Below, piece by piece: positions 9,371-53,496 of a stretch of 53,496 bases of DNA (position 1 is the first letter of the stretch; the number at the start of each line of letters is the position of its first letter). Where the stretch lies: the NCBI GenBank assembly GCA_018613055.1, contig JAGGQZ010000028.1, positions 1 through 53,496 of the forward strand. The letters run 5' to 3'. Position numbers and translations under genes: made by a program. This stretch comes from Chryseobacterium sp. ISL-80 (GTDB lineage: Bacteria; Bacillota; Bacilli; Bacillales; Cytobacillaceae). The notes below the pieces were generated by a model. It made no database searches. It saw only the letters and a program-made list of their open reading frames with translations, and was not told where the DNA came from.

Positions 9371-9969
9371 TGTCTGAAGCTCACATTACTTCGGACATTT
9401 CCTTGCTCTTGCATCAGAACTCTGTCCGAAGTCGCCCCGGGTTCGGACATTTTTTTGCTTTCTGGCTGCCCTTTTGTCTGAAGCTGATCTCACTTCGGAC
9501 AAATTCTTGCTCATTCATCGGAACTTTGTCCGAAGTCGCCACAAGTTCGGACATTTTTTTTACTATCTACCTGCCCTTTTGTCTGAAGCTGACCTTACTT
9601 CGGACAAATTCTTGCTCTTTCATTTGAACTTTGTCCGAAATCGCCCCGGGTTCGGACATTTTTTTACTATCTACCTGTACTTTTGTCTGAAGCTGACCTC
9701 ACTTCAGACAAATTCTTGCTCTTTCATCGGAACTTTGTCCGAAGTCGACACAAGTTCGGACATTTTTTTACTATCTACCTGCCCTTTTGTCTGAAGCTGA
9801 CCTCACTTCGGACAAATTCTTGCTCTTTCATCGGAACTTTGTCCAAAGTCGCCACAGGTTTAGACATTTTTTCGCTTTCCACTTGTCATTATTGCTGAAG
9901 ATTAGCTTACTTCTGCCAGACTCTTGCTCTTTCACAAGGTATTAGTATAAAGTCGTACGATGTTCGGAC
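9371..9969. repeat. 52-bp repeat array A1 with 27-bp palindromic cores
   Basis: Ten well-formed units start at 9371, 9423, 9475, 9527, 9580, 9632, 9684, 9736, 9788 and 9840; two decayed ones follow up to 9969. All steps are 52 bp except one of 53. Each unit has a 27-bp core whose ends are TGTCYGAA and TTCGGACA (8-9 bp inverted arms, about 10-base centre) and a 25-bp linker. Two core types alternate, with centres GCTGACCTCAC-like and GTCGCCACAAG-like, so the higher-order unit is about 104 bp. The second type is followed by a T7 run like a terminator. The array fills the space between two minus-strand genes and has no coding sense. Confidence 0.9.
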
Positions 9970-10079
9970 AACTACTCGCGTTTCATCAATATATTGCCCG
10001 AAGCTGCGCTTGGTTGCACTGTCATCTGTTTTATCTTCACTATTTTTTCTCAATACAGCAGGTTGTTCTCCTGCCATCA

Positions 10080-10110
10080 AAAGCAAAAGACGACAGTTAC
10101 ATCCTGTCGC
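10080..10110 (-). terminator. Terminator of chemoreceptor gene
   Basis: A stem CGACAG/CTGTCG with TCTTTTGCTTTT follows on the minus strand just after the chemoreceptor stop. Confidence 0.7.
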
Positions 10111-10126
10111 CTGATTTAATCTCTTT

Positions 10127-11083
10127 TTATAAAGTGAAACTGTCAATCTGCTTATTCGTTTCTTCCAGTTTTATATCCACTTTGCTTGCTTCTTCTATAT
10201 GCTGCTGAATCAGTTCGTTTACTTGATCAAACAAGATTTTTGTTTGGGTAAGTTCGTCCATAACCTGGTTTGAGCTGTCCTTTTGATGCTCGATCTCCAC
10301 GATGACTTCCCCGACTTCTGACTTTACTTTTTGGATAACCGAAGATATGTATTCCATTCCAGCTGATGCATTCTTGCTTAAATTAATGCTCTGGTGGATC
10401 AACTTTGCACTGGATGTTGTCGAATCCATAGTTTCCTCTATTTCGCTCTGGATGTTGGCTGTGAGCAAGCCGATATCATTTGTGCTTTTCGCTGTATTCT
10501 CGGCAAGCTTGCGCACCTCTTCGGCGACCACTGCAAAACCATTGCCATGCTCTCCTGCCCTCGCTGCTTCAATCGATGCATTCAAAGCAAGAAGGTTCGT
10601 CTGGTCGGCAATTTCCTTTATGACCTGGACGATCATTTCAATTTCCTTCGATCGTTCATTTAGTTTCTTCATATTCTGAAATGCCTGATCAGAAATTTCC
10701 CCAACTTGATTAATCAACTGTTCGACCTGCCGGACCATTTCGCCGCCTTCAGCTGATTTTTCGACCATCTCTTTTGATGAACTGATTAAGCCATGACCTT
10801 TACCAGCATGCCCTGCTGCATGATGGACAGAATCCTTACTAATCTCATTCACTTTATCAAAGTGGGTTTTAATCTGACCGACCATACTCCCCAATACATA
10901 ATGTTGATCATTAACCAGTTCATGCTGAGAAATCGTGTTCCCCAATTCCAGCGCGAATTTTTCCATAAAAGCCTGAAAAAAAGCTTCCTTTTCTCCAAAC
11001 TGAGCATACAATTCGTCTACTTTATTTTGAAGTGCCTGTTTTTCCCCTTCAGCTACCTTTAACCGCTTCAACGTTGTCAGCAT
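10127..11083 (-). CDS. Soluble methyl-accepting chemotaxis protein
   Basis: This 318-residue protein has the conserved signalling hairpin [19 protein letters not shown] followed by [16 protein letters not shown], which binds CheA and CheW. No transmembrane helix or HAMP domain is present. The N-terminus (about 80 residues) is a charged coiled coil, followed by a helical stretch with [13 protein letters not shown] that could bind a ligand or metal. It is therefore a cytoplasmic receptor, like YfmS or HemAT in location but without a recognisable globin or PAS domain. The ATG at 11083 is used because of GGAAGA upstream; the frame is open to 11170. No che genes are nearby. Confidence 0.85.
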
Positions 11084-11241
11084 TCTATCTTCCCACGCTT
11101 TCTCCCTATTTGCATGAAAATTATAGCAATAACAGGAACAGCTCGTTGTGATATTTATCACAGTAACCATAAAACCGGCTAAAGAACCTCAGTCTATCCC
11201 AGCACCAAACAGTGACCATTTACAGCTAAAATAATTGGCCA

Positions 11242-11979
11242 TTATAATTTATGATCCAACTGCCGGCCAATAAACTCCTTAAATGCCCTGATTGGTTTCC
11301 TTTGTGAAGCACTTCTCCACTTCACGTACTCCAATGCGAGAATACATAAAATCAGCCAGATGCCTCCAGCGAGATAGCCGGCGATAACGTCGCTCGGATA
11401 ATGAGCTCCGAGATAAATCCTGCTCATTCCGATAAGGATAGGCATCAATCCACATAGGTAAAATGCAATCCATTTGATTCTTTTTTTCAAGTTCGAGCGA
11501 AGTAAGTAATAACCCAGGAATCCGTAGAAAAGCAAGGAACCCATTGAGTGGCCGCTTGGAAAGCTGTAACCGATCGCGTCGATTGCCTCGTCGATGGACG
11601 GCCGTTCTCTTCCAAAGTATAGTTTCAGCAGCTTTGTCAGCAGGCCGCCTCCTCCAATGGCAATGATGAAAAATAGAATGCTCCATTTGTCTCTCTTTTT
11701 TAACCATAAGAATGAAAGGAAAAGTAGCGAGAAAATGCTAAGGAACCAAATTGAACCTGATTCTGTTATCCAAAACATGATTACATCCAGTGTGTCTGTT
11801 GCGAAATGATGGAAAAAACCAATGATGCTATTATCAAAACTTTCCACTTCGGATTCTAGCATTTCTTCAGCTAGTTCTGCGAATAAGTATAGAAAAGCGA
11901 TGGACACTCCTAAACCGGCTGCAACCAGGAGGACCGGAAGAAGCGTATTTTTCGCTTTTGTTTTCTTGTGATCATTCAT
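11242..11979 (-). CDS. PAP2-family phosphatase (lipid phosphatase)
   Basis: This 245-residue membrane protein carries the three phosphatidic acid phosphatase motifs: KLYFGRERP, FPSGHS and SRIYLGAHYPSD. Five to six membrane helices surround them. Members dephosphorylate lipids such as undecaprenyl pyrophosphate or phosphatidylglycerol phosphate on the outer face of the membrane. The substrate here is not determined. GGAGGG lies ten bases before the ATG. The RsbR-like gene is upstream in the same direction but separated by a terminator. Confidence 0.9.
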   Translation of the reverse strand: MNDHKKTKAKNTLLPVLLVAAGLGVSIAFLYLFAELAEEMLESEVESFDNSIIGFFHHFATDTLDVIMFWITESGSIWFLSIFSLLFLSFLWLKKRDKWSILFFIIAIGGGGLLTKLLKLYFGRERPSIDEAIDAIGYSFPSGHSMGSLLFYGFLGYYLLRSNLKKRIKWIAFYLCGLMPILIGMSRIYLGAHYPSDVIAGYLAGGIWLILCILALEYVKWRSASQRKPIRAFKEFIGRQLDHKL

Positions 11980-12032
11980 TTAACATTTCCCTCCAATCTA
12001 CACAATAGAAGTTCCCTTTTTAAAATAATGGC

Positions 12033-12064
12033 AAACAAAAAACGGCAGCTTAGCCACTGCCGTT
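12033..12064 (-). terminator. Terminator of RsbR-like gene
   Basis: ACGGCAG pairs with CTGCCGT and the minus strand continues with TTTTTTGTTTG. It lies just after the stop codon of the STAS-domain gene. Confidence 0.85.
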
Positions 12065-12075
12065 CGTTCCTCGTA

Positions 12076-12903
12076 TTATTTTCCATAGGATAAAATCGCC
12101 TGCTGGACGGTTCCGTAAGTGTCCAATTTTGAAAAATCGATGCCAGTATTAATGACATCAATTGCGAGATCTGCACGGATTCCTGTTAGCATCGTCTCGA
12201 TTCCGATCAGTTTCAGGACTTTATGGATATTGAAGATCCGTGCTGCAATTTCACCGTCAATCGTTGCAATTCCTGAAAAATCAATAATTAATGTCTTGAT
12301 TCTCAGTTCACTGATTTTCGGGATTACGTGGGTCATGATATAGTCGCTGCGTTCATAATCGAATTCACCAATCAACGGAAGAATTGCCATTCCTTTTTCA
12401 ATTGGGACGATTGGCGAGGACAACTCGGATATAATACGCTCGTTCTTTTTATTCAGATCTTGCGCTTGTCTTTCACGCTCGAGGATCGTCTCAGTGATGC
12501 TTAGATCCAACAGATAACTAAGTCGGCTATTGACGTAAACGGCATCTTCAGTCGAAAGTCCTTCACTTACTGAAACGTTCGTAAGCATTTCGATCAACTG
12601 CAGGCGAGTTTCTGCATAAGGTTTTATGATGCTCTCTAGCTCTAGGGATGCATACTGAAATTGCTTTTGCTTCAGCTGTTTTTCTCTATGCCAATGAATA
12701 AACCTCTCTGCCACCGTCTCGTTCGAAAGATTTAATGTCTCCCCCAAAAACCCCAGGAATTCAGTGTTTGTTTTTATGGACTCGGAAATTATTTCGTCAG
12801 GTAGTTCTATGTCTAGTTTTTTCAGATTATAGTCAGTAATTTCCTTGCTGATCTTTTCAGCATTTTCAATAAGGTATCGGGAAAATCTTTCGATTGGCTT
12901 CAC
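12076..12903 (-). CDS. RsbR-like STAS-domain protein
   Basis: This 275-residue protein has the RsbR paralogue layout. Residues 1-155 form a helical, non-haem-globin-like N-terminal domain and the last 110 residues a STAS domain introduced by ELSSPIVPIEKGMAILPLIG. Where RsbR proteins carry phosphorylated threonines, the sequence reads IDFSGIATIDGEIAARIF, with a Ser and a Thr. RsbR paralogues form the stressosome with RsbS and RsbT and pass signals to sigma B. No rsbS, rsbT or sigB is visible in the window, so this is an orphan sensor unit. The start is GTG after TAGGAG. Confidence 0.85.
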   Translation of the reverse strand: MKPIERFSRYLIENAEKISKEITDYNLKKLDIELPDEIISESIKTNTEFLGFLGETLNLSNETVAERFIHWHREKQLKQKQFQYASLELESIIKPYAETRLQLIEMLTNVSVSEGLSTEDAVYVNSRLSYLLDLSITETILERERQAQDLNKKNERIISELSSPIVPIEKGMAILPLIGEFDYERSDYIMTHVIPKISELRIKTLIIDFSGIATIDGEIAARIFNIHKVLKLIGIETMLTGIRADLAIDVINTGIDFSKLDTYGTVQQAILSYGK

Positions 12904-13002
12904 TTTTTCAGCTCCTATTAATTGTTCCGCTTTTTCTTTTAAAGATTATACCATGTTTGTATCATTAGATAATAATATTAACTGAAGCAATATAAAAAGA
13001 CA

Positions 13003-13031
13003 AAAATAAAACGACAGTTCTAAACTGTCGT
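13003..13031 (-). terminator. Terminator of YdcZ-YeiL-YdcZ operon
   Basis: A perfect 9-bp stem (ACGACAGTT/AACTGTCGT) with a 3-base loop is followed by TTTTATTTTTG on the minus strand. Confidence 0.85.
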
Positions 13032-13047
13032 AAAAAATCGGTCTTAT

Positions 13048-13542: not shown

Positions 13543-13560
13543 TGTATAGCCTCCTACTTA

Positions 13561-14262: not shown

Positions 14263-14277
14263 AATCCTTCCCTTTTG

Positions 14278-14703: not shown

Positions 14704-14764
14704 TTCTTCTCTCCTCAATCCTAATGTATATGTTCATTAAAAGACAGAACAGAGAATTCAGGAA

Positions 14765-14776: not shown

Positions 14777-14813
14777 CAAATTTACAAAAACTATTTTAAA
14801 GAAGAGAGGTTCA

Positions 14814-17858: not shown

Positions 17859-18000
17859 CGATATGCTCCCCTCCGCTCCCAACCAGTTATATTTATTTTA
17901 ACAAAAAATTACAGGTTCTTGAGGCTTTATTCGCAAATTCAAATTGCGTGTTACCGAAACAAAGGAAATTATCTCATCACGGGTCCATGTTTCCGCATCT

Positions 18001-18620
18001 TCTCCCTGTGAATCCCCCATCCGCTCCATTTCGGGCACATGTTCCAGCATCTTCTCCCCGTGAATCATCTGTCCGCTTCTTTTCGGGCACATGTTGCACC
18101 AACTTCTCCCCGTGAATCCTCTTTCCGCTCCTTTTCAGGCACATGTTGCACCAACTTCTCCCCGTGAATCCTCTTTCCGCTCCTTTTCGGGCACATGTTG
18201 CACCAACTTCTCCCCGTGGATCATCTGTCCCCTCCATTTCGGGCACATGTTACACCAACTTCTCCCCGTGAATCCTCTGTCCCCTCCATTTCGGGCACAT
18301 GTTACACCAACTTCTCCCCGTGAATCCCCTGTCCCCTCCATTTCGGGCACATGTTACGCCATCTTCTCCCCGTGAATCATCTGTCCGCTTCTTTTCGGGC
18401 ACATGTTGCACCAACTTCTCCCCGTGAATCCTCTTTCCGCTCCTTTTCGGGCACATGTTACACCAACTTCTCCCCGTGAATCCTCTTTCCGCTCCTTTTC
18501 GGGCACATGTTACACCAACTTCTCCCCGTGAATCCTCTTTCCGCTCCTTTTCGGGCACATGTTCCACCATCTTTTCCCTGTAAATCCCATGTCATCACCA
18601 TTTCGAGCACATGTTGCTCC
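18001..18620. repeat. 52-bp tandem repeat array B
   Basis: Twelve units with the shared start TCTCCCCGTGAATC begin at 18001, 18053, 18105, 18157, 18209, 18261, 18313, 18365, 18417, 18469, 18521 and 18573, with every step exactly 52 bp. A decayed unit precedes the first. The second half of each unit carries TTTTCGGGCACATGTT. Only a weak dyad is present (CCCG...CGGG, 31-bp span). Unit differences fall at a few positions, giving subtypes that alternate in blocks. Because 52 is not a multiple of three, the long frames across the array are not genes. The array sits in the divergent gap before the ECF sigma operon. Confidence 0.95.
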
Positions 18621-18760
18621 ACACATTACATCCTGCAACCTAGGAACTCGCCTCATTTTAACCCTCCACCGATAATTGTCCACCCACCAGAGTTAATTTT
18701 TGGTAAAGTTAAAACATATTAGACAAGCAAGTCAATTCGGAACAGAATTTTTACAAAAAG

Positions 18761-24409: not shown

Positions 24410-24764
24410 ACGTATGCAGGCATTTTCAGCTTTGTAGGGGTACCATTCAAGCGGAAAGATACCCTTATGCAAGCATTTCCACTGCCATAAGGGCATCATT
24501 CTAGCGGAAACATACCCTTATGCATGCATTTCCACCTCCATAAGGGCATCATTCTAGCGGAAACATACCCTTATGCATGCATTTTCACTGCCATAAGGGC
24601 ATCATTCTAGCGGAAACATACCCTTATGCAAGCAATTCCACCTCCATAAGGGCATCATTCTAGCGGAAACATACCCTTATGCATGCATTTTCACCTTCAT
24701 AAGGGCACCGTTCTAGCGGAAACATACCCTTATGCAAGCAATTTCACCGCCATAAGGGCACTAT
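24410..24764. repeat. 53-bp repeat array C with inverted arms
   Basis: Six good units have ACCCTTATG at 24461, 24514, 24567, 24620, 24673 and 24726, exactly 53 bp apart, after one decayed unit. In each, CCCTTATG is followed 16 bases later by CATAAGGG, giving an 8-bp inverted repeat with a 32-bp span. The linker between cores contains CTAGCGGAAAC. The array fills the gap between two minus-strand genes and ends two bases before the stop codon of the acetyltransferase. It has no coding sense. Confidence 0.95.
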
Positions 24765-24765
24765 T

Positions 24766-25317
24766 TCACATGCCTTTAAATTCCTCTTTTAAAATAGCAA
24801 ATAGATAATGATCTCTCCATTGTCCTTTTACTTTCAAATTTTTAATAAAATGACCTTCCTGTCGGAAACCTATTCTTCTTAAAAGGTTGACTGAACCAGC
24901 ATTTTCTACATCACAGACGGCATATATCCTATGAATATCCATCGTATTAAACCCTAAATATAATAATCCGTTTACAATTTCTTTTCCGTACCCTTGTTTC
25001 CAGTAGGATGAATTTATAAAATACCCGATTTCTACTGTTTGACAATCCTGATCTCTTATTATAAACAAAGCATTTCCGATAACTTTTTTTGTCTCTTTTT
25101 GCACTACGGCTAAAACATATATTTGTCTGTTTTCTTCGGTTTGAAAAGCAATCTGCTTTCTAAGGCTATGTAATGTTTGCTCTCGATTAGTTGGTCCCCA
25201 GGTTAAGTATTTAACCACTTTTTGATCTGACTTAAATTGATAAATATCTTCAAAATCCTCTTCATTAAGCTCCCTCAGGACAAGCCTGTTCGTTTCCACT
25301 GGTTTAATTCTAGCCAT
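24766..25317 (-). CDS. GNAT acetyltransferase, RimJ/RimL-like
   Basis: The 183-residue protein has the ribosomal-protein alanine acetyltransferase layout: VETNRLVLRELNEEDFEDIY, IGNALFIIRD, EIGYFINSSYWKQGYGKEIV (acetyl-CoA pyrophosphate loop) and NAGSVNLLRRIGFRQEG. It would transfer acetyl from acetyl-CoA to an amine on a protein or small molecule. GGAGG lies ten bases before the ATG. The stop codon is directly at the end of repeat array C. Confidence 0.85.
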   Translation of the reverse strand: MARIKPVETNRLVLRELNEEDFEDIYQFKSDQKVVKYLTWGPTNREQTLHSLRKQIAFQTEENRQIYVLAVVQKETKKVIGNALFIIRDQDCQTVEIGYFINSSYWKQGYGKEIVNGLLYLGFNTMDIHRIYAVCDVENAGSVNLLRRIGFRQEGHFIKNLKVKGQWRDHYLFAILKEEFKGM

Positions 25318-26351: not shown

Positions 26352-26491
26352 ATTGCCACTCACTTTCATTTTTATCAGTAGGTTATCAAAATGTTTTGAA
26401 CACTTTCGTTACTATTTATATTAACAAATTGTACCAAATTAGGTGGTTTTATTGTTAAAAGAATACATATGTATATTCGGGAGTGAGCGTT

Positions 26492-26962
26492 TTGTTGGAT
26501 TTATTTTTATATAATTGGCAAGTAAGAGATGATTGGTTTAATTGGTGTAAATCCATATCACCAGAAGAGTTAAAAGCGGAACGAGTTGGCGGGATGGGAA
26601 GCATTCTGAAAAACCTAATCCATGTGATCGATTGTGAACTTTTATGGCTTAATTACATGCTTGAAAAGCCTAATCACTATCCTGAAAAGGATTCAATCAC
26701 CAGCTTAGATGATGCTATTAGATTTTCAGATTTCACTAAAAAAGTAACTGAAGATTTTATTAGTCACTTACCAAATGATTTCGATGGTAAACTAATTCAT
26801 ATAAAAAATAATAGAGGTAAAGTTCATACATTCAGTTGCGGCAAGATCCTCCGTCATATAATCACCCATGAGATCCATCATATCGGCCAACTATCAATTT
26901 GGTCGCGGGAGATGGATATGAAACCTGTTTTGTCCGATTTAATCATTCGAAATTACACATGA
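26492..26962 (+). CDS. DinB-fold protein, copy 3 (YjoA-like)
   Basis: The 156-residue protein has a DinB-fold pattern: LKNLIHVIDCELLWLNYML with a metal-binding His, and the C-terminal ILRHIITHEIHHIGQLSIW with three more histidines. The start is placed at TTG 26492, eight bases after GGGAG; an in-frame GTG at 26483 overlaps the Shine-Dalgarno. It is the third DinB-fold gene here and differs strongly from the others, so it is not a recent duplicate. Confidence 0.85.
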   Translation: MLDLFLYNWQVRDDWFNWCKSISPEELKAERVGGMGSILKNLIHVIDCELLWLNYMLEKPNHYPEKDSITSLDDAIRFSDFTKKVTEDFISHLPNDFDGKLIHIKNNRGKVHTFSCGKILRHIITHEIHHIGQLSIWSREMDMKPVLSDLIIRNYT

Positions 26963-29181: not shown

Positions 29182-29697
29182 TTACTGTTCCTGTAATTCC
29201 CTAAGTAATTGGAAAATTTGTCCCCTATGGTGGGATTCATGTTCAATTAAATGGTAAACAACCCATTCAGGGGTTACATCATATTGTTCAAGTACACGTG
29301 GTTTTCGCCAATCGTTTAAGTCTATTGAACGGAAGTAGGAAAGGAACACTTCACGGACTTTTTTTAGACGATTAAGATGTTGCTCTAAGCTTTCTCCCTC
29401 AATGTGTGTCAGGTTACTGGCAGTGCGGCTTTCCAATGGGAACAACGAGCTAATTTCGGGATCCCAGTCTGTTCCGAGGACCTCGACATATAACCAGTCT
29501 GCCTCTACCAATGCAATGTGGTACAAGAGTGAGCCAATTGAATGCCTTCCGAGCATTTTTTTGTCTAATAAGTTCTGGTCTATTCCTGTTAATTTAGTAG
29601 TAATTGTTTGGCGTACATCCTCTAAACACCATAACCACCTGCCGATTTCTGGTTCATAGCCTGTTAATGAAGATATTTTCAATGATTCTCTATTCAA
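29182..29697 (-). CDS. DinB-fold protein, copy 4
   Basis: This 171-residue protein has SIGSLLYHIALVEADWLYVE and the C-terminal VYHLIEHESHHRGQI, the His triad of the DinB/DUF664 family. It starts with TTG nine bases after GGGAGG. It is the fourth DinB-fold gene in under 30 kb. As with the others, a bacillithiol-dependent transferase or hydrolase role is possible but not shown. Confidence 0.85.
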   Translation of the reverse strand: MNRESLKISSLTGYEPEIGRWLWCLEDVRQTITTKLTGIDQNLLDKKMLGRHSIGSLLYHIALVEADWLYVEVLGTDWDPEISSLFPLESRTASNLTHIEGESLEQHLNRLKKVREVFLSYFRSIDLNDWRKPRVLEQYDVTPEWVVYHLIEHESHHRGQIFQLLRELQEQ

Positions 29698-32090: not shown

Positions 32091-32393
32091 TTGGATAAGA
32101 CAATATGCCCTAGATTTGAAAAAGCCATGGGGATCTTAGGCCAAAGATGGACTGGGTTGATAATGTATCAGCTCTTATCTGGCCCTCAGCGGTTTTGCAC
32201 AATAGAATCAGCAGTAGGAGTAAGTGGCAGAGTCCTGTCAGAAAGACTGAAAGATCTAGAAAGCGAAGGAATCGTCAAACGAGATGTTTATCCAGAAACA
32301 CCCGTACGAATCGAATATTCCTTAACCGAAAAAGGCCAGGCATTAGAACCACTGATGAAAGAAATCGAAACATGGTCGCAATCATGGCTGTAG
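32091..32393 (+). CDS. YodB/CatR-type redox-sensing HxlR-family repressor
   Basis: This 100-residue winged-helix protein begins MDKTICPRFEKAMGILGQRW. Cys6 is the conserved redox cysteine of YodB and CatR (Cys6/Cys7), and LLSGPQRF, LSERLKDLESEGIVKRDVYPE and RIEYSLTEKG complete the family. Oxidation by quinones or diamide releases such repressors from DNA. Only one cysteine is present, so regulation would need an intersubunit or mixed disulphide, or alkylation. The TTG start at 32091 is nine bases after AAGGAG and puts the cysteine at position 6. Confidence 0.85.
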   Translation: MDKTICPRFEKAMGILGQRWTGLIMYQLLSGPQRFCTIESAVGVSGRVLSERLKDLESEGIVKRDVYPETPVRIEYSLTEKGQALEPLMKEIETWSQSWL

Positions 32394-32512: not shown

Positions 32513-32705
32513 ACGGTTAGGCCCGATTTATCGACGGTTACAGCATTTTTCCAACGGTTACAGCCATTTTATCAACGGTTGCAGATGATTTATTAACGGT
32601 TGGAACATATTTATTTACGGTTACAGCCAATTTATTTACGGTTAGACCCATTTTATTTACGGTTACAGTCATTTTATTTACGGTGGGAGCCATTATAACG
32701 GCTGC
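32513..32705. repeat. 21-bp tandem repeat array D
   Basis: ACGGTTACAGCCATTTTATTT-like units start at 32513, 32534, 32554, 32575, 32596, 32617, 32638, 32659 and 32680, nearly all 21 bp apart, with a shorter final step to 32698. There is no inverted repeat. The array lies between the convergent ends of the redox-repressor gene and a secreted protein gene. The 21-bp period is two helical turns. Confidence 0.9.
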
Positions 32706-39158: not shown

Positions 39159-39243
39159 CTCACCTCCTTCATAACAATGTATTCTGACAAGGAAGGGTTT
39201 GTATGGATATGAATCCATGAACCTAAACATATTTAGCTTTCTT

Positions 39244-39374
39244 TGTCCATCATCCTGGGTATGACGGACAGAAATGAAAGAAATCAAGCTCAAAGTGTCC
39301 GTCATCAGGTTTATGACGGACAAAAATCAGTGGATAGAAGACAAAAGTGTCCATCATCAGGATTATCCCGGACA
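39244..39374. repeat. Short 52-bp repeat array E with 27-bp palindromic cores
   Basis: Three cores start at 39244, 39296 and 39348, exactly 52 bp apart. Each core is 27 bp with arms TGTCCGTCAT and ATGACGGACA (10 bp, one mismatch in the first, two in the last) and a 7-base centre. Core length, period and the outer TGTCCG/CGGACA are shared with arrays A1 and A2, but the inner arm differs. It lies in the divergent gap between the Cys-rich small protein and a LysM protein. Confidence 0.9.
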
Positions 39375-39580
39375 ATAAAGAACGCAATGAAGATAAAAGT
39401 GCAAATGCCACTCCTCCAATTAGTCTTAATTGGTTTATTACCTATCACTCGCGAATTAAGTTAACATAATATTTTTATAAACAACCCATTATCCCCTCTT
39501 CACCACCCAAATGTCAAAATGGGCTTATCCCTTCGAAACTCGGTCAGAATCATCTCGTCAAACTATATGAGGTGAGGAAA

Positions 39581-46081: not shown

Positions 46082-47632
46082 CTAACTATGCAAACTTCCT
46101 TTTAACCACGGCCTCGGGCGGAAGTTACCGATTGGAATTCGAATCAGGCTTGTTTGTTCACTCATTTCGTAAAGCTGATCCGCCATGCTTGCATTGAAGC
46201 CAAGCAGAGGATGACCTCCCAGTCCCAGAGCGGAGGATGTTAAAAGCAATCTTTGCACGAGCATGCCTGCTTCCATTTGTAAGATCCGGTAGCCCCTGTA
46301 TCCCAGTTCTTTCTGGTAAAATTCCATATTGCCTGCAACGTGCAGGCAAAGCGGCACCTGCTGCAGATTAACGTTATCAAAGGACAAACCTGACTGTAAG
46401 AGCAGACGATGATCTCCTTGCTGGATTTCTAGTAATCTATGTTCCCTGCTATCGTAATGATAGGCCCCGTTCGGGATACCTTCAACATTATAGAGACAGC
46501 TATAGACTGAAACCTTGGGTTCTTGACCGAAAAAAATGTCGTCCACATCATTGCGGTAATGAAACGAAGTTAACGATTCCTTCAACAGAACCGCCAACTG
46601 CTCCTGACTTATGCGTGATAAAACAAAATCCATCTCTGGTGAAAAGCGTTTTTTGCTTACTTCTGCCAGATCATATGGTAATGATTCTGTTTGTGGAAGA
46701 TGAATCACTCGGTTTCGGCGGTCTTCATAAGAGCGGTTTCTAAGCCGCGTAAAAGAGGCGGTTGATTCGAATTTTGCTGCATCATTCATTTCGATTAATT
46801 TATGGAATTCCAGAACGTTTTTAGACCTTTCTACACGCTCAAAAACCACTGGCTTCAACTCTTTTTTTAGCGTATCTGCGGTTATATGCGTTCCGATGCC
46901 GCTCCCAGTCCAGTTTGTCGGCTCTACCGACAGCGGGATTACCGAATAGATGCTCTCCTCTTGTTCGGATAAACCAAGAAGGTGATTGAGTGCCGAATCC
47001 AAATATTGATAGTAAACCCCGGCAGCAAAACCAAAACGTTTTGCACTTTCCAACAGCTGCCCCATCAGTACGCCGGCATCCAAGCCCTGCAGGCGATAGG
47101 AGAAATTATTGTACTTAAAGAAGTTTTTCCAGAACATAGTGGAGATGAATACTGTGCCGAAGCAGGATGAAAGCTCACAACGTTCTCCTAAGGCAGCGGA
47201 AATGTAGGAATCAAAATTTCCGGCCCGCAACAAGACAAGTCGGTGGTGCGATGGATCATAATGATAGACTCCGTCAGGAAGCCCATTAATCTTCAAATAG
47301 ACATATAGTTCATTAGGATAGAGCGCCCCACCTGAGGGAGCAAACCTTCTGTAGGAATGAATCGGATTTGCTTCCTCCGGAAAAACAGACTCGCTCAGTT
47401 GAGAGATTCCGAAAACATACCAGAGAAAATGACCGATTCCTTTTAAATCTGGACTTGCTGGCATTCTGTATTCCTCGAGGGACAATGGGACCTCCGCAGA
47501 GAGAGGCACAACCGGAAGTCCTTTGTATAGTTTATAGGCTAAAGGTGCATCCTCCCAATTGGGTTCCCAGTTTTCCTGGTTGGCACGATCGATATCAAAA
47601 TGTAAATCCTTCAGAAATTCATCAAGTGTCAT
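46082..47632 (-). CDS. Double SagB-type azoline dehydrogenase
   Basis: The 516-residue protein has two nitroreductase-like SagB domains in one chain. The first (about 80-275) has YRRFAPSGGALYPNELYVYL and LPDGVYHYDPSHHRLVLL. The second (about 345-515) has IPNGAYHYDSREHRLLEIQ and YRGYRILQMEAGMLVQRLLL with LGLGGHPLLGF. SagB enzymes use FMN to oxidise azolines to thiazoles and oxazoles. The duplicated form fits the dehydrogenase of heterocycloanthracin-type clusters. GGAGG is seven bases from the ATG, and it starts 11 bases after the YcaO stop codon, so both genes form one operon. Confidence 0.9.
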   Translation of the reverse strand: MTLDEFLKDLHFDIDRANQENWEPNWEDAPLAYKLYKGLPVVPLSAEVPLSLEEYRMPASPDLKGIGHFLWYVFGISQLSESVFPEEANPIHSYRRFAPSGGALYPNELYVYLKINGLPDGVYHYDPSHHRLVLLRAGNFDSYISAALGERCELSSCFGTVFISTMFWKNFFKYNNFSYRLQGLDAGVLMGQLLESAKRFGFAAGVYYQYLDSALNHLLGLSEQEESIYSVIPLSVEPTNWTGSGIGTHITADTLKKELKPVVFERVERSKNVLEFHKLIEMNDAAKFESTASFTRLRNRSYEDRRNRVIHLPQTESLPYDLAEVSKKRFSPEMDFVLSRISQEQLAVLLKESLTSFHYRNDVDDIFFGQEPKVSVYSCLYNVEGIPNGAYHYDSREHRLLEIQQGDHRLLLQSGLSFDNVNLQQVPLCLHVAGNMEFYQKELGYRGYRILQMEAGMLVQRLLLTSSALGLGGHPLLGFNASMADQLYEMSEQTSLIRIPIGNFRPRPWLKGSLHS

Positions 47633-47643
47633 TCTTGCACCTC

Positions 47644-49593
47644 CTATGGGAACGGATGCGGCAAGTGGTTTAGTTCTTCATATGTCAAAGGTTTCTTTGT
47701 ATAGCCGAGCTGCATCGGGACATGCAGCACCCGATCGAGCCCTTTGAGTCGGGTCAGGTGGTGCCCGAAGGTCATTGGCAGCATTCCGGGTATCATCACT
47801 TTCACACAATTAAGCCCATTTTTCCTCAGTTCCGGAGGGGTCTGATCGACAACGATGACATTGAGGCCCAATTGACGGAATCTCCCAAGAACTTCCTTTA
47901 AATCTTCGGTCAAGTCATCATGACGCGACTCCCAGTTAAATGCATCAGGAAAACTTTGCATTGACCGGCTGTCATCGAACAGGAAGTGCAACCGCTCTTC
48001 AGCCTGCGGAAGTCCGTAAAGCATCCCGTGGTCATCCATTTGCCGCACAAGGTAATCATCTTCAAGCATTTGTAAATACTTTTCCTTATTCTCTTCGAGT
48101 TTCCCATCAAGATTGAGCATCATCCCAGCCAGCTCCTGGATCGCACTCTTGGCAGCCTTCACAGGATCAAGATGGGCCCCTGCTGCACAAATAATGTTCA
48201 ATCCCTTATCCTTTCGGTTCTTCGCCATCGCCCAGACGCTTGGTATGCCATGCTCCATGGTGGCGTTATACAAAAATAATTCATAGCCAGCTACCGCACG
48301 CATGCGCTCTTCCATCAATTGCAGTTCTTCGTCGTCTGCAGAACAAGGATCAAGTCGGGGCAGGTTCAGCTTTGCGTACCATGATAAGAGGAAGGAGTCT
48401 CGCTCGACAACTTCCATAATGCCATAAAAAATCGCCTCTTCCATGCTTCCGCCAAGAGCACAGCCATTTGAAGTTTCATAGACAAATCCAGAGGACCCGC
48501 ATCCCAGACTATAATAGGAGAGCAGCTCAGGCACAAGGATTGGACGATCTTCAGTCAATGAGTAACCCCAGACCCAATCCATCGGCCGTTCGGGATCGAA
48601 TTTCTGAAATGGAAATCCTTGTTTTTCATATTGCTCATCCGCGTGGACGCCAACTTCCAAAGGGTTCAAAGCCTGTGCCTCTAAGTTTCGGTAACTGTCA
48701 TGAACAACTGGGCGTTTACCGCGCGGTTCAAGTCCGCAATGACGCTCAAGGCCTTCCAGGATGGCAGTCAGTTCGCTGTCAGCATAGCATTGTGTCCTTC
48801 CAGCCGTGCCTTCATTGCCACCGGAGATCATCGGCAGATTGACACTGGAATCAGCGAAAGGTGTGACCAAATCATACATTTTGCTGTTTAACAGTCCTGT
48901 CCGGTTGTCAAAATAATCCGCATAGAGGACTTTCTTCAATTCATCCAGCGGTGTAGTGCGGTAGCTGCCGGGGCTGATTTTTGGACTTGAGCTCAGTGAA
49001 ATTTTTGCGAGTTCAGCGGAATCCTCAGGAATCTGACTGCATACCGGGCACAGTGAATCAGCAAGGAGAGAGTGCCATGATCCATTTAATGTCTTTAGGT
49101 CGGTAAAATACATTCTTCCCTCGAGCTGAGACTCTTTCCCTGCAAGGATTTTATCAGTCTCCTCCACAATTACATGTGCGAGCTGCAAGAGTCCGTTTTG
49201 TGTGGCCCATGGATCGCTTGCCATCCCTTCTTTAGCGGCCAGTTTTTGCTTCACTGCCTGCATCTTACTTCGTTCCTGTCCCCCAAGAAGCCTTCTATGA
49301 TCGGCACATTGTGAACATCCTGGAGTACCCGGTCGAACGAGGGGTCCGGCAATGCCTTCTCCAAAGGAAACAAAACCCCTGAGCCATGGGCTCCCTGTCA
49401 TTTTTACGGTTTCTTCAGCCTTTTGATGGGCAGCGGGATTCCACGTATCATGGAGCACCAGGATCAGCTCCGAATTTGCGGGGAGACTATTTTCAAAATC
49501 AGTCCGCCTGAACACCTGGTAACGGGTTGATAACTCTTCCCCCACCCGATCTGCAAGCCTGCCTTCTCCAATAATTACTACGAAGGAACTCAA
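47644..49593 (-). CDS. YcaO cyclodehydratase of TOMM cluster
   Basis: The 649-residue protein has an N-terminal E1-like part with a zinc site (Cys93, Cys96 in CSQC; Cys182, Cys185 in CPVC) and a C-terminal YcaO domain. YcaO motifs are SELTAILEGLERHCG, GCALGGSMEEAIFYGIMEV followed by VERDSF, and the very C-terminus ends in PHPFP, the P-x-P-x-P end needed for catalysis in this family. It uses ATP to cyclise Cys and Ser/Thr to azolines on the precursor. It starts with TTG and overlaps the preceding gene by four bases. Confidence 0.95.
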   Translation of the reverse strand: MSSFVVIIGEGRLADRVGEELSTRYQVFRRTDFENSLPANSELILVLHDTWNPAAHQKAEETVKMTGSPWLRGFVSFGEGIAGPLVRPGTPGCSQCADHRRLLGGQERSKMQAVKQKLAAKEGMASDPWATQNGLLQLAHVIVEETDKILAGKESQLEGRMYFTDLKTLNGSWHSLLADSLCPVCSQIPEDSAELAKISLSSSPKISPGSYRTTPLDELKKVLYADYFDNRTGLLNSKMYDLVTPFADSSVNLPMISGGNEGTAGRTQCYADSELTAILEGLERHCGLEPRGKRPVVHDSYRNLEAQALNPLEVGVHADEQYEKQGFPFQKFDPERPMDWVWGYSLTEDRPILVPELLSYYSLGCGSSGFVYETSNGCALGGSMEEAIFYGIMEVVERDSFLLSWYAKLNLPRLDPCSADDEELQLMEERMRAVAGYELFLYNATMEHGIPSVWAMAKNRKDKGLNIICAAGAHLDPVKAAKSAIQELAGMMLNLDGKLEENKEKYLQMLEDDYLVRQMDDHGMLYGLPQAEERLHFLFDDSRSMQSFPDAFNWESRHDDLTEDLKEVLGRFRQLGLNVIVVDQTPPELRKNGLNCVKVMIPGMLPMTFGHHLTRLKGLDRVLHVPMQLGYTKKPLTYEELNHLPHPFP

Positions 49594-51491
49594 TCCACTC
49601 CCTCCTCTCGCAGCAATACACCAACCACCCCTTCGAGTTGCTGGTTAAAAATTGGTTCAATTAGCAAGTCGTATACTGCCAACTCGATTTCGTTCTCTTT
49701 CAGGACATTCATTGCTGCATACAAGGTTTCCGGCTGGATTCTTTCTGGACATTCAGAAATCGCGATTTTTTGTTTTTGCCGTTCTTCAAGCTGCACCTCT
49801 GAATCATTGAGGCAATCACCGTCCGATTCATTCTGGAAATCGGCCAAAGCACTCTGTAAAGCGTTCCTTAACGCCATGGTGGCGTTCAAATCCGCACTGC
49901 CATACCAGCCTTTGCTCGTTCCAGCCCAGAAAACAGGAAAACCGTTTATGTCATTTCCCATTCCTACTCTCGGTGTACCCTGCATTGTCGTAAGAGCTTT
50001 TATATAGAAACGACAGCGATTGTCTTCAATTGGCTCAAGGTCCACAAGAGTTATCGATTCTTTTTGTCCAGCTCTTCGATTATTCAACTTCTCTGACAGA
50101 CATTTTTTCAAACCGCGCCCAACGGCTTCCGCAAAGGACTCCCCGGCGCCGACACCTATGAACTGCCCGTTATCAAACAAGCCAGACATTCGTGATGCAT
50201 AATCTTCGATTCCAGATAACGCCGCTTCTATCCGTGCCTCTTCATGTGTTAAGCCACTGCATACCCGCGCTTTCAGCAACTCAGCCGGACCATCAGACAG
50301 CGGATCGACGGCCTGGACACGGCATTGTGCCAGCGGAAGTTGTTTCAGGTCCCCTTCCTCCCACACATGCAGGATCCCGGTCTCCCTGGAAGTCAATAAA
50401 CTAAAATAGTGAAATAATTTTTCCGGATCAGGACCTCTTTGGTTCTTTCCGATTCTGTCCTCGAGGATTTCCGCCTTTTCCAATGTGAAGGCGCGTGTTT
50501 CCAATGGATGAGGAAAAAACGAATGCCAGCTTCCTTCAAGTGTCTCTAAATCCAGCATAAAGATCCGATTTTTTTGTTCAGATGTTGTGACGCCAGCCAG
50601 ATCTTTAAATAATTCAAAAGTAATCACGTTCGACAGCAATGCACCTGTTGTCAATGAAGCCCAAGGTACTCCTTGCTCTTTTTCAAAGACGGAGGAATGC
50701 AATCGCCTCCAGGCTGACTCCCAGCAAATTTCTGAACCCGGATTAAAGATTGGACCTGCTAAGCCTTTATTTTTCAGAATGATAGCTGGAAGGAATGCTT
50801 TGTTCTCCTCTCTGCAAATGTTTTGCCACGTCCTCAGCTCTTCCAGATTGCCTCCCTGTGAAACATAAAGGATATGATCATATGAGCTCAGTAACTCCCG
50901 CCAGTTCCCTTCTTTTACCGGCTGTTCCTGATACACCACCTCTGAATCTGTTTTACGGGCATGAGCTACCAGCTCCGCAAGTCTTTTTCTGTTCGTCGGC
51001 ATTTCATTTGTAATCGAGACATTCAGTTTTTGCAGGCCAGATTCCATTAAAGAAGATACGAGTGAATTCAACATCGGCCCTGACCCAACAGCAAGGACAT
51101 TTGCATCCCGGAATGTCTGGAATCTTGCAGCACCCGAGCCGGCCAAATTGTCCACAAACTCAATTTGCGAGGCGAATTTTTTTCTAACCTCCTCCGATAG
51201 TGAATGCGGTTCATCCCTGGCAACATCCCGTACAAAGCCATTCTCTAAAAGGACCCCGGCAATTTGATATACACGCTCCCTATATGGTCCTGGCAGCCCG
51301 TCAGTCAATTTTTCCAGCGTATACTCTCCATTGAACATCGGCAAAAGCTTTTCAACCCACTGATCAATCCCGATTCCCTCAAGACGGAAGGAACATGAGT
51401 TATTTCGTAAATACACTCCCCTGTTAGGTTCAGAGAGATAAAACGTATCCCTTTTCACCTTCAAACGCATGGAAGGATCCAAATTTGCCAT
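49590..51491 (-). CDS. Ocin-ThiF-like leader-binding protein (F protein)
   Basis: This 633-residue protein matches the thiazole-containing bacteriocin maturation (ocin-ThiF-like) family. It has an N-terminal winged-helix peptide-clamp segment (YLRNNSCSFRLEGIGIDQWV, EYTLEKLTDGL), a Rossmann-like ANVLAVGSGPMLNSL and a segment LDLETLEGSWHSFFPHP. The last parallels LKTLNGSWHSLLADS in the YcaO partner but lacks the zinc cysteines. F proteins bind the leader peptide and hand the precursor to the cyclodehydratase. AGGAGGAG precedes the ATG. Confidence 0.9.
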   Translation of the reverse strand: MANLDPSMRLKVKRDTFYLSEPNRGVYLRNNSCSFRLEGIGIDQWVEKLLPMFNGEYTLEKLTDGLPGPYRERVYQIAGVLLENGFVRDVARDEPHSLSEEVRKKFASQIEFVDNLAGSGAARFQTFRDANVLAVGSGPMLNSLVSSLMESGLQKLNVSITNEMPTNRKRLAELVAHARKTDSEVVYQEQPVKEGNWRELLSSYDHILYVSQGGNLEELRTWQNICREENKAFLPAIILKNKGLAGPIFNPGSEICWESAWRRLHSSVFEKEQGVPWASLTTGALLSNVITFELFKDLAGVTTSEQKNRIFMLDLETLEGSWHSFFPHPLETRAFTLEKAEILEDRIGKNQRGPDPEKLFHYFSLLTSRETGILHVWEEGDLKQLPLAQCRVQAVDPLSDGPAELLKARVCSGLTHEEARIEAALSGIEDYASRMSGLFDNGQFIGVGAGESFAEAVGRGLKKCLSEKLNNRRAGQKESITLVDLEPIEDNRCRFYIKALTTMQGTPRVGMGNDINGFPVFWAGTSKGWYGSADLNATMALRNALQSALADFQNESDGDCLNDSEVQLEERQKQKIAISECPERIQPETLYAAMNVLKENEIELAVYDLLIEPIFNQQLEGVVGVLLREEGVD

Positions 51492-51596
51492 TTCACTCCT
51501 CCTTGGGCTTTTCCAGCCCCCTTCTTTGCTTAATTACCTCGCATTATCATCGTATGTATCTCAATTTGTCCCTTATGTCTTATCACGGGAATAACG

Positions 51597-51628
51597 AAAG
51601 CTCCTGCTTTTCCATTTGCAGGAGCTTT
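51597..51628 (-). promoter_or_regulatory. Hairpin between precursor and F-protein genes
   Basis: AAAGCTCCTGC and GCAGGAGCTTT form a perfect 11-bp stem around a ten-base loop, 20 bases after the precursor stop. There is no T run on the minus strand. It may be a processing or stabilising hairpin or weak terminator that keeps precursor mRNA in excess over the enzymes. Confidence 0.65.
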
Positions 51629-51647
51629 CCTTAAAAACTATATTATT

Positions 51648-51938
51648 TTAACCCCGATGGCACCGGCCACAGCCGCCGCAACGACCGCATCCTCCACAAC
51701 GGAAGCAACCGCCGCAGCCGCCACAGCGGAAACAGCCTCCGCAACGGAAACCTCCGCACCCAAAGCAGCTAAAGAAGCAAGAGAACCCGAAGCAGCCGCC
51801 AAAGCCACCCAAACCCAAACCTAGAAAACGCTCATCTCCTGCATGGTGGTACACGCTTTGATCCCAGCTGACAGGTTGAGTTGCCTGGAAATCACCAACA
51901 TTCAGCATTTGCAGCTCATTATGAAAATCATTCATCAT
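51648..51938 (-). CDS. Heterocycloanthracin/sonorensin-type TOMM precursor
   Basis: The 96-residue peptide has a leader of about 45 residues (MMNDFHNELQMLNVGDFQAT, then PVSWDQSVYHHAG) and a Gly/Cys-rich core. Fourteen cysteines lie at 49, 54, 58, 61, 66, 69, 72, 75, 78, 81, 84, 87, 90 and 93. The last ten are exactly three residues apart, with Gly, Phe and Arg between them. Two serines (53 and 57) precede cysteines. This is the repeated C-x-x pattern of heterocycloanthracins, where cysteines become thiazoles. GGAGGAGG lies nine bases from the first ATG. Codons are GC-rich compared with the flanks. Confidence 0.95.
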   Translation of the reverse strand: MMNDFHNELQMLNVGDFQATQPVSWDQSVYHHAGDERFLGLGLGGFGGCFGFSCFFSCFGCGGFRCGGCFRCGGCGGCFRCGGCGRCGGCGRCHRG

Positions 51939-52265
51939 TTTTCTTTACCTCCTCCAAATAATAAAGGGCCGTTCTACACAACAAAAAACAAAGAGCTAAC
52001 CAGATATGTTTCCGTATAAAAGTTGCAAACATTATTGAATACTCTTCAACAATTTATGTCGACAAAAGGGCCTTTGTCACATATGCAAAAGCCTATTTTG
52101 TGTGGTGATGGGAAAAAGAGGAATTTAGAGGCAATATGTAAGGAATACAAAACAAAAGCCAAACACCTTTAGTAGTAAGTTTTTTTCACTACAAAATATT
52201 CTGCAAACGTCATATCAAAGATGTACAATAGAGCTATAAAATTGATTCATTTTGGAGGGTAATAA
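51939..52265. other. Divergent promoter region of the peptide cluster
   Basis: This gap holds the start regions of the precursor (minus) and of the AIM24-like gene (plus, GGAGGG before its ATG). GACAAA and TTTGTC at 52061-52078 form a small dyad around AGGGCC, a possible operator. I see no convincing sigma-A promoter for the precursor by eye, and no further gene. Confidence 0.5.
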
Positions 52266-53057
52266 ATGAGGAATCATGAAATTGATTACAAAATTTACGG
52301 TGATGACATGCAGTTTGTTGAGGTTGAACTAGATCCGAGCGAGACGGTTGTCGCCGAAGCTGGCAGTCTGATGATGATGGACCAGCAAATTGAAATGGAA
52401 ACGATTTTTGGTGATGGTTCCGGAAGCGGCGGCGGTCTTGTTGGCAAACTGTTCGGCGCAGGAAAGCGACTGCTGACTGGCGAGAGCCTTTTTATGACAA
52501 CCTTCACCAATGCCGGACATGACAAAAAACATGTGTCCTTTGCTTCCCCTTACCCAGGAAAAATCATTCCAATGGATTTGAGCGAGCTAGGCGGAAAAAT
52601 CATCTGCCAGAAAGACGCTTTCCTTGCAGCTGCAAAAGGAGTATCTGTTGGAGTTGAGTTCCAGAGGAAGCTAGGAGCCGGATTCTTTGGCGGCGAAGGT
52701 TTCATCATGCAAAAGCTAGAAGGAGACGGAATGGCCTTTGTTCATGCCGGCGGTACCATACATAAAAAAGAACTCCAGGCAGGAGATGTCATCCGCGTCG
52801 ACACAGGCTGTCTAGTAGCGATGACAAGTAATGTGGATTATAACATTGAAATGGTAAAAGGCATCAAAACCGCCCTGTTTGGCGGAGAAGGATTATTCTT
52901 CGCTACACTGAGAGGACCAGGAACAGTATGGATCCAATCCCTTCCATTCAGCCGACTTGCAAGCAGAGTCTTTGCCGCAGCACCCCAAGGCGGAGGACAA
53001 AATAAAGGTGAAGGCAGTGTACTAGGCGGAGTCTTCCGTATGCTGGATGGCGATTGA
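52266..53057 (+). CDS. TIGR00266/AIM24 family protein
   Basis: The 263-residue protein follows the AIM24-like family: DMQFVEVELDPSETVVAEAG, LTGESLFMTTFTN, GVSVGVEFQRKLGAGFFGGEGF and the end SLPFSRLASRVF. It forms a jelly-roll-like beta barrel and is widely conserved in Firmicutes, with no firm biochemical role. The ATG follows GGAGGG. A 52-bp repeat array starts 17 bases after its stop codon, so no ordinary terminator is seen. Confidence 0.85.
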   Translation: MRNHEIDYKIYGDDMQFVEVELDPSETVVAEAGSLMMMDQQIEMETIFGDGSGSGGGLVGKLFGAGKRLLTGESLFMTTFTNAGHDKKHVSFASPYPGKIIPMDLSELGGKIICQKDAFLAAAKGVSVGVEFQRKLGAGFFGGEGFIMQKLEGDGMAFVHAGGTIHKKELQAGDVIRVDTGCLVAMTSNVDYNIEMVKGIKTALFGGEGLFFATLRGPGTVWIQSLPFSRLASRVFAAAPQGGGQNKGEGSVLGGVFRMLDGD

Positions 53058-53073
53058 TTAATTGGAGAAGAAA

Positions 53074-53496
53074 TTCGGACACTTTCTTTTCGCCGAGCCA
53101 GTGTTTTGTCTGAACTTGCACCTGCTTCGGATACTTTCTTTTCGCCGAGCCAGTGTTTTGTCTGAACTTGCTCCTGCTTCGGACAATTTTCATTGGCCGA
53201 GCTGGGGTTTTGTCTGAACCTGCACCTACTTCGGACACTTTCTCCTGACTGAGCCGAGGTTTTGTCCGAACTTGCATCTACTTCGGACACTTTCTCCTGA
53301 CTGAGCCTGAGTTTTGTCTGAACTTGCTCCTACTTCGGACAATTTCTTCTTGCCAGGACGGAGTTTTGTCTGAACTTGCATCTACTTCGGACAAATTTCA
53401 CTGGCAGAGCAGGTATTTTGTCTGAAATTGCACCTACTTCGGACAATTTTCACTGGTAGAGCTGGAGTTTTGTCCGAACTTCTACCTACTTCGGAC
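53074..53496. repeat. 52-bp repeat array A2 with 27-bp palindromic cores
   Basis: After a half unit at 53074, cores start at 53107, 53159, 53211, 53263, 53315, 53367, 53419 and 53471, every step 52 bp; the last is cut by the window end. Cores are 27 bp with arms TGTCYGAA and TTCGGACA, the same as array A1, but centre (CTTGCACCTAC-like) and 25-bp linker differ from A1. The array is thus a second member of the same repeat family 43 kb away. It continues past the window. Confidence 0.95.

What the first reader, a model, noticed from the sequence alone, without database searches (positions are those of the whole stretch)
9371..53496. Several unrelated intergenic repeat families share one 52-bp helical period
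Arrays at 9.4, 18.0, 39.2 and 53.1 kb have a unit of 52 bp (a single 53-bp step in all), the one at 24.4 kb has 53 bp and the one at 32.5 kb has 21 bp. These equal five and two turns of B-DNA. Three families (A, B, C) do not resemble each other in sequence. Most units hold an inverted repeat with a fixed span (27 or 32 bp). Chance duplication would not give the same length in unrelated sequences; a constraint from helical phasing or a common copying mechanism is likely. All are intergenic and 52 is not a multiple of three. Possible roles are phased protein binding, nucleoid organisation or non-coding RNAs.
Basis: partly seen in the sequence, partly recalled or inferred. Interest (0 to 1): 0.85.

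Follow-up and report, generated by a model that had tools for sequence, protein, structure and literature searches.

The report
Bacillaceae 52-bp phased intergenic repeat arrays
This Mesobacillus genome carries short repeat arrays between genes whose repeat length stays at about 52 letters although their sequences differ; the class was already published, but many of the arrays share a hidden symmetrical frame and resist length change, which makes their unknown function testable.

Summary
In detail: 52-53-bp arrays at 9.4, 18.0, 24.4, 39.2 and 53.1 kb, and a 21-bp array at 32.5 kb. The genus is that of Mesobacillus subterraneus. In 850 kb of the genome, 20 of 50 intergenic arrays have period 52/53 and 17 have 20/21; 0 of 20 coding arrays have 52/53.

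The phenomenon is published: Subirana and Messeguer 2021 (PMC8161180) describe constant 52-nt and 20-21-nt repeats of variable sequence in Bacillus, function unknown.

Added here:
- Many families are not unrelated: TGTC-N19-GACA, a 27-bp dyad, is in 30 of 47 arrays, other gaps 0-1, and in 5 of 27 published units. Inner arms covary.
- Spacer and dyad change separately.
- Spacers under 60% identical keep equal length in 22 of 25 pairs; about 12% expected.
- Arrays tend to avoid divergent regions and start codons, and copy number changes in place.

Best explanation (0.4): phased DNA sites for an oligomerising dimeric protein. A length-preserving satellite (0.3) and structured RNA (0.2) remain. 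Helical phasing is not shown: only two length classes occur, and 51 and 53 exist.

The parts
9368..9988 (.). 52-bp array, family A (TGTCYGAA-N11-TTCGGACA, 27 bp; two alternating unit types, 104-bp higher order), decayed at its right end
   Evidence: relatives G011 and G020 hold about two decayed units 52 bp apart at the same site (read by eye)
17990..18625 (.). 52-bp array, CGGGCACATG type (27-bp GGG...CCC frame, weak dyad)
24430..24770 (.). 53-bp array, TACCCTTATG/CATAAGGG dyads
32513..32694 (.). 21-bp array (ACGGTTACAGCC-ATTTTATTT type); between convergent gene calls, of which the left one (32163-32393) is weak
39240..39410 (.). three 52-bp units, TGTCCRTCAT...ATGACGGACA type (27-bp dyad)
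   Evidence: frame test
53074..53496 (.). 52-bp array, family A, cut by the contig end; starts 17 bp past the end of the gene at 52266-53057
   Evidence: G011 and G020 hold a single TTCGGACA-N25-TGTCCGAA copy here, G001 an array of 4.3 copies by TRF

Best explanation
Each 52-bp unit is one site of a repeated DNA platform: a dyad (most often TGTC-N19-GACA with complementary inner arms) plus a 25-bp spacer. A dimeric DNA-binding protein, or a small set of paralogues with related specificity, binds the dyads and contacts its neighbours along the array, so the distance between dyads is held at about five turns; the 21-bp arrays would be a separate two-turn version. Arrays grow, shrink and homogenise by slippage or unequal recombination; units whose length changes stop fitting and are lost. 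The likely output is local nucleoid architecture or insulation in the region downstream of genes. Shown: period, dyad frame, inner-arm covariation, deficit of length changes, intergenic position with a bias away from starts, copy-number change in place. Inferred: the protein, its oligomerisation and the architectural role.
For: TGTC-N19-GACA in 30 of 47 52-class consensus units, against 0-1 at each of 42 other gaps; after masking family-A arms it is still the most enriched gapped 4-mer pair in 136 kb of intergenic DNA, 34 against a mean of 1.4. TGTCC-N17-GGACA far above its reversed control in a number of genomes (for example 314 v 5 in the own genome; 240 v 8 in C. oceanisediminis). Inner arms covary between arrays (21 arrays outside the strict family-A definition: 97 of 147 Watson-Crick against permuted mean 62.6, maximum 89 in 2000), as for homodimer half-sites or hairpins. 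Length change is rare given divergence. No clear dependence on gene direction: the G-U strand equals the gene strand in 29, opposes it in 21, ties in 3. Of 66 arrays with wobble-class mismatches, 28 have them of both strand senses. Orientation in G011 is mixed along the chromosome. Arrays of the 52 class lie a median 169 bp from start codons (2 of 40 under 60 bp) and 92 bp from stop codons (12 of 54 under 60 bp).
Against: No binding protein is identified. The inner arms differ strongly between arrays, so one protein would need loose specificity. Only two length classes occur, not other multiples of a turn; 51 (G126, and one array near the 53-kb orthologue in G006) and 53 (C type, L116) also occur, and the own genome mixes 52 and 53. 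In 32 arrays with at least 4 wobble-class mismatches the minority strand sense is rarer (mean 0.17) than independent, strand-free mismatches would give (0.35), which common descent or RNA selection could cause. Covariation fits RNA or single-strand hairpins equally well. The GG...CC frame was found post hoc and did not stand out in the published families (3 of 27 at gap 21, 4 at gap 24); published families include dyads of other spans (read by eye), so the dyad frame is not universal. Isolated dyads exist too: Calidifontibacillus (G044) has TGTCCTTCAT...ATGAAGGACA listed singly at three places and no 52-class array in the 200 kb surveyed.
Confidence: 0.4

Rival explanations
1. Satellite with a copying ruler: the arrays have no cellular function; units descend from few founders and are multiplied, shuffled and homogenised by slippage, hairpin-driven template switching and unequal recombination, and the length is kept because off-length units do not take part in exchange. 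Purifying selection only keeps them out of promoters.
For: Rapid turnover: the 9.4-kb array is about 2 units in two relatives at 92% protein identity, the 53-kb array is one unit in two relatives at 98% and 4.3 copies in one at 97%. Patchy distribution even within genera (f6 g10: 115, 7 and 118; f29 g33: 2, 2 and 65). Module reuse: 31 of 435 array pairs share spacers at 65% identity or more against 0.22 expected, 15 of them with inner identity of 0.5 or less. Depletion in divergent regions. The listed arrays of G126 all step by 51 (9 of 9 steps).
Against: Spacers below 60% identity still keep their length in 22 of 25 pairs. Inner arms stay complementary while changing. The same length recurs across many genera. 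A purely mechanical ruler has no known agent.
Confidence: 0.3
2. Structured non-coding RNA: arrays are transcribed, alone or as 3' tails of neighbouring genes, and the hairpins act as protein sponge, decay barrier or regulator.
For: Covarying arms; position downstream of genes and excess between convergent genes; terminator-like hairpins stand at the 53-kb site in the species that lack the array (read by eye); published transcription in B. coagulans (PMC8625621, passages read).
Against: No clear agreement between the G-U-tolerant strand and gene direction (29 v 21, 3 ties); both strand senses in 28 of 66 arrays; 5 of 47 arrays lie between divergent genes; RNA function gives no reason for an exact 52-nt unit when loop and arm lengths vary; no Rfam family reaches its gathering score in the window.
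Confidence: 0.2
3. Mobile palindromic element of the REP/BIME kind, spread by a RAYT-like transposase and clustered into arrays.
For: Palindromic intergenic units, several families per genome, units of one family at many sites; isolated dyads in Calidifontibacillus.
Against: A same-genus draft genome rated 100% complete (G006, about 60 contigs) with 236 dyads has no Y1_Tnp match; Y1_Tnp occurs in 102 of 120 genomes, rich and poor in dyads alike. Isolated family-A dyads are rare in the own genome: 1 isolated intergenic case in 850 kb against 10 clusters of 5 or more arms.
Confidence: 0.05

Closest known systems
52-nt constant-length, variable-sequence tandem repeats of Bacillus (Subirana and Messeguer 2021, PMC8161180; whole main text read)
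   Same: Length 51-53, several sequence families per genome, non-coding, species-dependent abundance, partial conservation of place and copy number; B. selenatarsenatis, B. boroniphilus and B. subterraneus (now Mesobacillus) are among their species.
   Different: They state no sequence conservation beyond species-specific short signals (and note that signals and their reverse often sit in one repeat). Here one 27-bp frame is shared by families of several genera, with covarying inner arms, exchangeable modules, a measured deficit of length changes, and a bias away from divergent regions.
20-21-nt tandem repeats of Bacillus and other bacteria (same paper)
   Same: Period 20-21, non-coding, several families in one genome, coexisting with the 52 class.
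   Different: Here 14 of 41 lie between convergent genes and 1 of 41 between divergent genes, against 102 and 217 of 880 intergenic regions of 150 bp or more; no such statement was seen in the main text.
REP/BIME elements of enterobacteria (recalled, not compared by sequence)
   Same: Intergenic palindromic units in clusters with regular spacing.
   Different: Constant 52-bp period, arms differing between arrays, no dependence on Y1 transposase found, few isolated copies in the own genome.
CRISPR arrays (recalled)
   Same: Palindromic part and spacer part of constant length.
   Different: Spacers here are repeated, not unique, and recur between arrays.

Membership tests
52-nt constant-length tandem repeats of Bacillus (PMC8161180) | Unit length 51-53 | tested here: met
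   20 of 50 intergenic arrays in 850 kb; 627 of 657 family-A steps are 52
52-nt constant-length tandem repeats of Bacillus (PMC8161180) | Several families of different sequence in one genome | tested here: met
   (20 arrays printed)
52-nt constant-length tandem repeats of Bacillus (PMC8161180) | Non-coding | tested here: met
   0 of 20 coding arrays at 50-54 bp; gene calls by an own script
52-nt constant-length tandem repeats of Bacillus (PMC8161180) | No sequence conservation between families | tested here: not met
   TGTC-N19-GACA in 30 of 47 arrays and 5 of 27 published consensus units. A descriptive claim of the paper, not a criterion of membership
52-nt constant-length tandem repeats of Bacillus (PMC8161180) | Transcribed | not testable with these tools
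   no RNA data here; reported for B. coagulans in PMC8625621
20-21-nt tandem repeats | Unit 20-21, non-coding, several families | tested here: met
   17 of 50 intergenic arrays; families listed
REP/BIME | Dispersed palindromes linked to a Y1 (RAYT) transposase | tested here: not met
   G006: 236 dyads, no Y1_Tnp match in a draft rated 100% complete; isolated family-A dyads rare in the own genome
CRISPR | Near-identical repeats with unique spacers | tested here: not met
   spacers repeated within and between arrays; cas genes not searched
Replichore-polar chromosome motifs (KOPS/SRS type) | Orientation skew by replichore | tested here: inconclusive
   G011: arrays of both orientations along the chromosome, no skew seen by eye, one loop type only; origin not mapped
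Intrinsic terminators | Hairpin followed by a U-run, one strand | tested here: inconclusive
   alternate units of the 9.4-kb array are followed by a T-run; most other arrays printed are not

The most novel reading that the evidence does not exclude
The 52-bp arrays of Bacillaceae are largely one old, modular element: a 27-bp dyad with fixed outer half-sites TGTC/GACA and freely changing but complementary inner arms, joined to an exchangeable 25-bp spacer, held at a pitch that is fixed per family or genome (51, 52 or 53 bp) by a trans-acting protein that polymerises on DNA, so that a genome carries dozens of dispersed, phased nucleoprotein platforms of a kind not described in bacteria.
Probability: 0.25. 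Interest if true: 0.85.

Novelty: new member of a known kind. Interest (0 to 1): 0.5.

Why it matters
A repeat class that holds its length but not its sequence has been in print since about 2020-2021 with no function. A shared dyad frame, an estimate of the length constraint, and close relatives with one, two or many units at the same site give defined probes and natural controls to find the binding factor, or to show that the arrays are mere satellites.

Tried and rejected
Rfam, gathering threshold, whole window: 0 matches. Plasmid collection, distant search of the TOMM cluster to place the organism: one weak hit. Paper searches listed nothing on these repeats; one search found PMC8161180; its companions. 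Of these: PMC8161180 main text read whole; PMC8625621 passages; PMC6749651 abstract and outline; the 2020 J. Bacteriol. paper is not held, nothing of it seen.

Orientation by replichore: no skew seen. RNA strand test: no clear signal. RAYT/Y1_Tnp as agent: not required by the data. The GG...CC 27-bp frame looked general in Mesobacillus and Cytobacillus (13 of 17 non-TGTC arrays) but not in the published families; I do not claim it as general. A validation set from G015 and G041 gave only 2 arrays of the 52 class (1 with the TGTC frame), too few to count. Neobacillus drentensis and Calidifontibacillus stretches (200 kb each) gave 2 and 0 arrays of the 52 class, G024 and G028 (100 kb each) none, so the density found in Mesobacillus does not hold everywhere.

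Known weaknesses: gene calls come from a home-made hexamer caller. TRF period is the smallest period with at least 30% of the best score in an overlap cluster. Arrays and units are related by descent, so shuffles and permutations overstate significance. One of the 17 non-TGTC arrays is family A with a shortened TRF consensus, and two of the 21 'non-A' arrays look like variants of A. The context table leaves out arrays without both neighbours; for the 52 class the bias is modest (binomial p 0.009 convergent, 0.027 divergent), for the 21 class stronger (0.0001, 0.0002).
Full report
CHECK OF THE OBSERVATION. Tandem Repeats Finder on the window gives arrays of period 52 at 9368-9934, 17999-18615, 39292-39401 and 53074-53496, of 53 at 24444-24760 and of 21 at 32513-32694. 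Printing the units shows steps of 52 throughout the 52-bp arrays, with one 53 in the 9.4-kb array, and three units at 39240-39410. Gene calls leave all of them intergenic. The genome (G000, 4.75 Mb, 35 contigs) belongs to the genus that holds Mesobacillus subterraneus: 2.5 kb of locus L097 of that species is 100% identical to G002, which is in the same genus as the window's genome.

GENOME-WIDE PERIOD. In 850,396 bases (the window plus stretches of C5, C30 and C35), 50 intergenic arrays have periods 52 (17), 53 (3), 21 (13), 20 (4), and 13 have eleven other lengths; 20 coding arrays show no 50-54. Surveys of 200 kb each gave 10 arrays at 52-53 in G011, 10 in Cytobacillus oceanisediminis (G050), 3 in G014, 2 in Neobacillus drentensis (G042) and 0 in Calidifontibacillus (G044); 100 kb each gave 2 in G032 and 0 in G024 and G028. 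G014 has no exact family-A dyad yet has 52-bp arrays with other arms.

ALREADY IN PRINT. Subirana and Messeguer (PMC8161180, main text read) found 4029 tandem repeats in 176 Bacillus genomes, 1886 with 51-53 nt and 781 with 20-21 nt, constant in size and variable in sequence, with B. selenatarsenatis, boroniphilus and subterraneus (now Mesobacillus) among them. They propose a nucleoid protein or small RNAs. PMC8625621 (passages) reports their transcription in B. coagulans. The central claim of the finding is thus known.

WHAT IS NEW: A SHARED FRAME. They state no sequence conservation. In 47 consensus units of the 52 class (42 at 52, 5 at 53) from six genomes, TGTC-N19-GACA occurs in 30, and TGTC-Nk-GACA at the other 42 gaps from 5 to 47 in 0 or 1. 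With family-A arms masked, this pair is still the most enriched gapped 4-mer in 135,676 intergenic bases of the own sample, 34 against a mean of 1.4. In the published table it is in 5 of 27 units, from B. coagulans (2), litoralis, thermoamylovorans and alkalitelluris, with at most 1 at any other gap. TGTCC-N17-GGACA reaches at least 14 copies and at least twice its reversed control in 22 of 120 genomes of the order, in 13 of 47 families (my count from the table). The inner arms differ between arrays but stay complementary: 97 of 147 Watson-Crick in the 21 arrays outside the strict family-A definition, against a permuted mean of 62.6 and a maximum of 89; rows are partly related. A second frame, GG[GT]-N21-[AC]CC, fits 13 of the other 17 arrays (shuffle maximum 4), but it was chosen after the fact and does not stand out in the published units. 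Published units also include dyads of other spans (by eye), so period is more general than frame.

MODULES. Among 30 TGTC-frame arrays, 31 of 435 pairs share the 25-bp spacer at 65% identity or more (0.22 expected from shuffles), and 15 of these have inner 19-mers at 50% or less; the best case is an own array (position 285509 of the joined C30 stretch) and one of C. oceanisediminis, spacer 0.88 and inner 0.37. Dyad and spacer therefore change separately.

LENGTH CONSTRAINT. Family-A loops are 11 bp in 761 of 784 arm pairs within 3-25 bp, and steps are 52 in 614 of 664 neighbours within 130 bp. In 87 runs with 744 units, steps are 52 in 627 of 657; 69 of 87 runs are all 52. Neighbouring non-array DNA of the own genome and its relatives has 188 gap openings per 1131 substitutions. 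At that rate spacers below 60% identity should be free of indels in about 12%; 22 of 25 have equal length. At 60-80% it is 143 of 155 against 30%, and above 80% 370 of 390 against 67%. Units of one array share descent, so these are not independent trials.

PITCH IS NOT ONE CONSTANT. G126 has 51 in 9 of 9 listed steps at five sites; TRF of three of these sites gives 51 each, with unlike spacers but TGTCCTTCAT arms in all three. L116 (a MAG) has 53. One 51-bp array lies near the 53-kb orthologue in G006 (L237). The own genome has both 52 and 53.

TURNOVER. At the 9.4-kb site G011 and G020 (orthologue 92% identical) hold about two decayed units 52 bp apart (counted by eye); G001 is too diverged there to tell. 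At the 53-kb site G011 and G020 (98%) hold a single TTCGGACA-N25-TGTCCGAA copy, G001 (97%) an array of 4.3 copies by TRF, and the other species shown a terminator-like hairpin after the gene; G009 and G003 show in addition two and one unit of another family (read by eye). Arrays expand and contract in place.

POSITION. With both neighbours called, 52-class arrays are co-directional 30, convergent 12, divergent 5 of 47; 21-class 26, 14 and 1 of 41; intergenic regions of 150 bp or more 561, 102 and 217 of 880. Binomial p is 0.009 and 0.027 for the 52 class, 0.0001 and 0.0002 for the 21 class. Median distances to a start codon are 169 and 205 bp, to a stop codon 92 and 86 bp. Both classes tend to keep away from promoter-bearing regions.

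DNA OR RNA. If one strand were read as hairpin RNA, G-U tolerance should mark that strand. Of 66 arrays with wobble-class mismatches, 28 have both senses, and in co-directional regions the G-U strand agrees with the genes in 29, disagrees in 21 and ties in 3. Against my reading, the minority sense in 32 arrays is rarer (0.17) than strand-free mismatches would give (0.35); descent could cause that. This gives no support to a fixed RNA strand but cannot exclude RNA. Orientation shows no replichore skew in G011.

VERDICT. A true, already described class; this genome adds members. Best reading: phased sites for an oligomerising dimeric DNA-binding protein (0.4), then a length-preserving satellite (0.3), then structured RNA (0.2). 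Helical phasing is compatible with 21 and 52 but is not shown, since other turn multiples are nearly absent and 51 and 53 occur.

Noticed in passing
window 46082-51491 (-) and 51648-51938 (-): A thiazole/oxazole peptide cluster: SagB dehydrogenase, SagD/YcaO maturase, ocin_ThiF_like protein, with a 96-aa Gly/Cys-rich precursor that matches TIGR03601 heterocycloanthracin/sonorensin family bacteriocin (63 bits, cut-off 35). Its 18/27-bp coding repeat varies between species at the orthologous place.
   Followed up: partly
window 53496, end of contig C21: The contig ends inside the 53-kb array (locus L223 is cut there), so such arrays may break assemblies and be undercounted in draft genomes.
   Followed up: no
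window 1075-1584 (+), 5737-6234 (-), 26483-26962 (+), 29182-29697 (-): Four DinB/DinB_2 superfamily proteins in 53 kb, all above the Pfam cut-offs.
   Followed up: partly
own genome C30:283495-283664, 304299-304473, 304656-304735 and 431481-431550; G015 stretches L313-L316: Intergenic repeats of 34, 89, 123 and 156 bp, several with a CCCTCGAGACGC-like motif, recur in Mesobacillus; a different repeat family outside the 52 and 21 classes (grouped by eye).
   Followed up: no
L209, base 54853-55619 of the joined G032 stretch: A 192-bp intergenic tandem repeat of 4 copies with long inverted repeats, in a genome of another family of the order.
   Followed up: no
L237:2294-2485 (G006): A 51-bp array of 3.4 copies near the orthologue of the 53-kb site, with arms unlike family A.
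   Followed up: no
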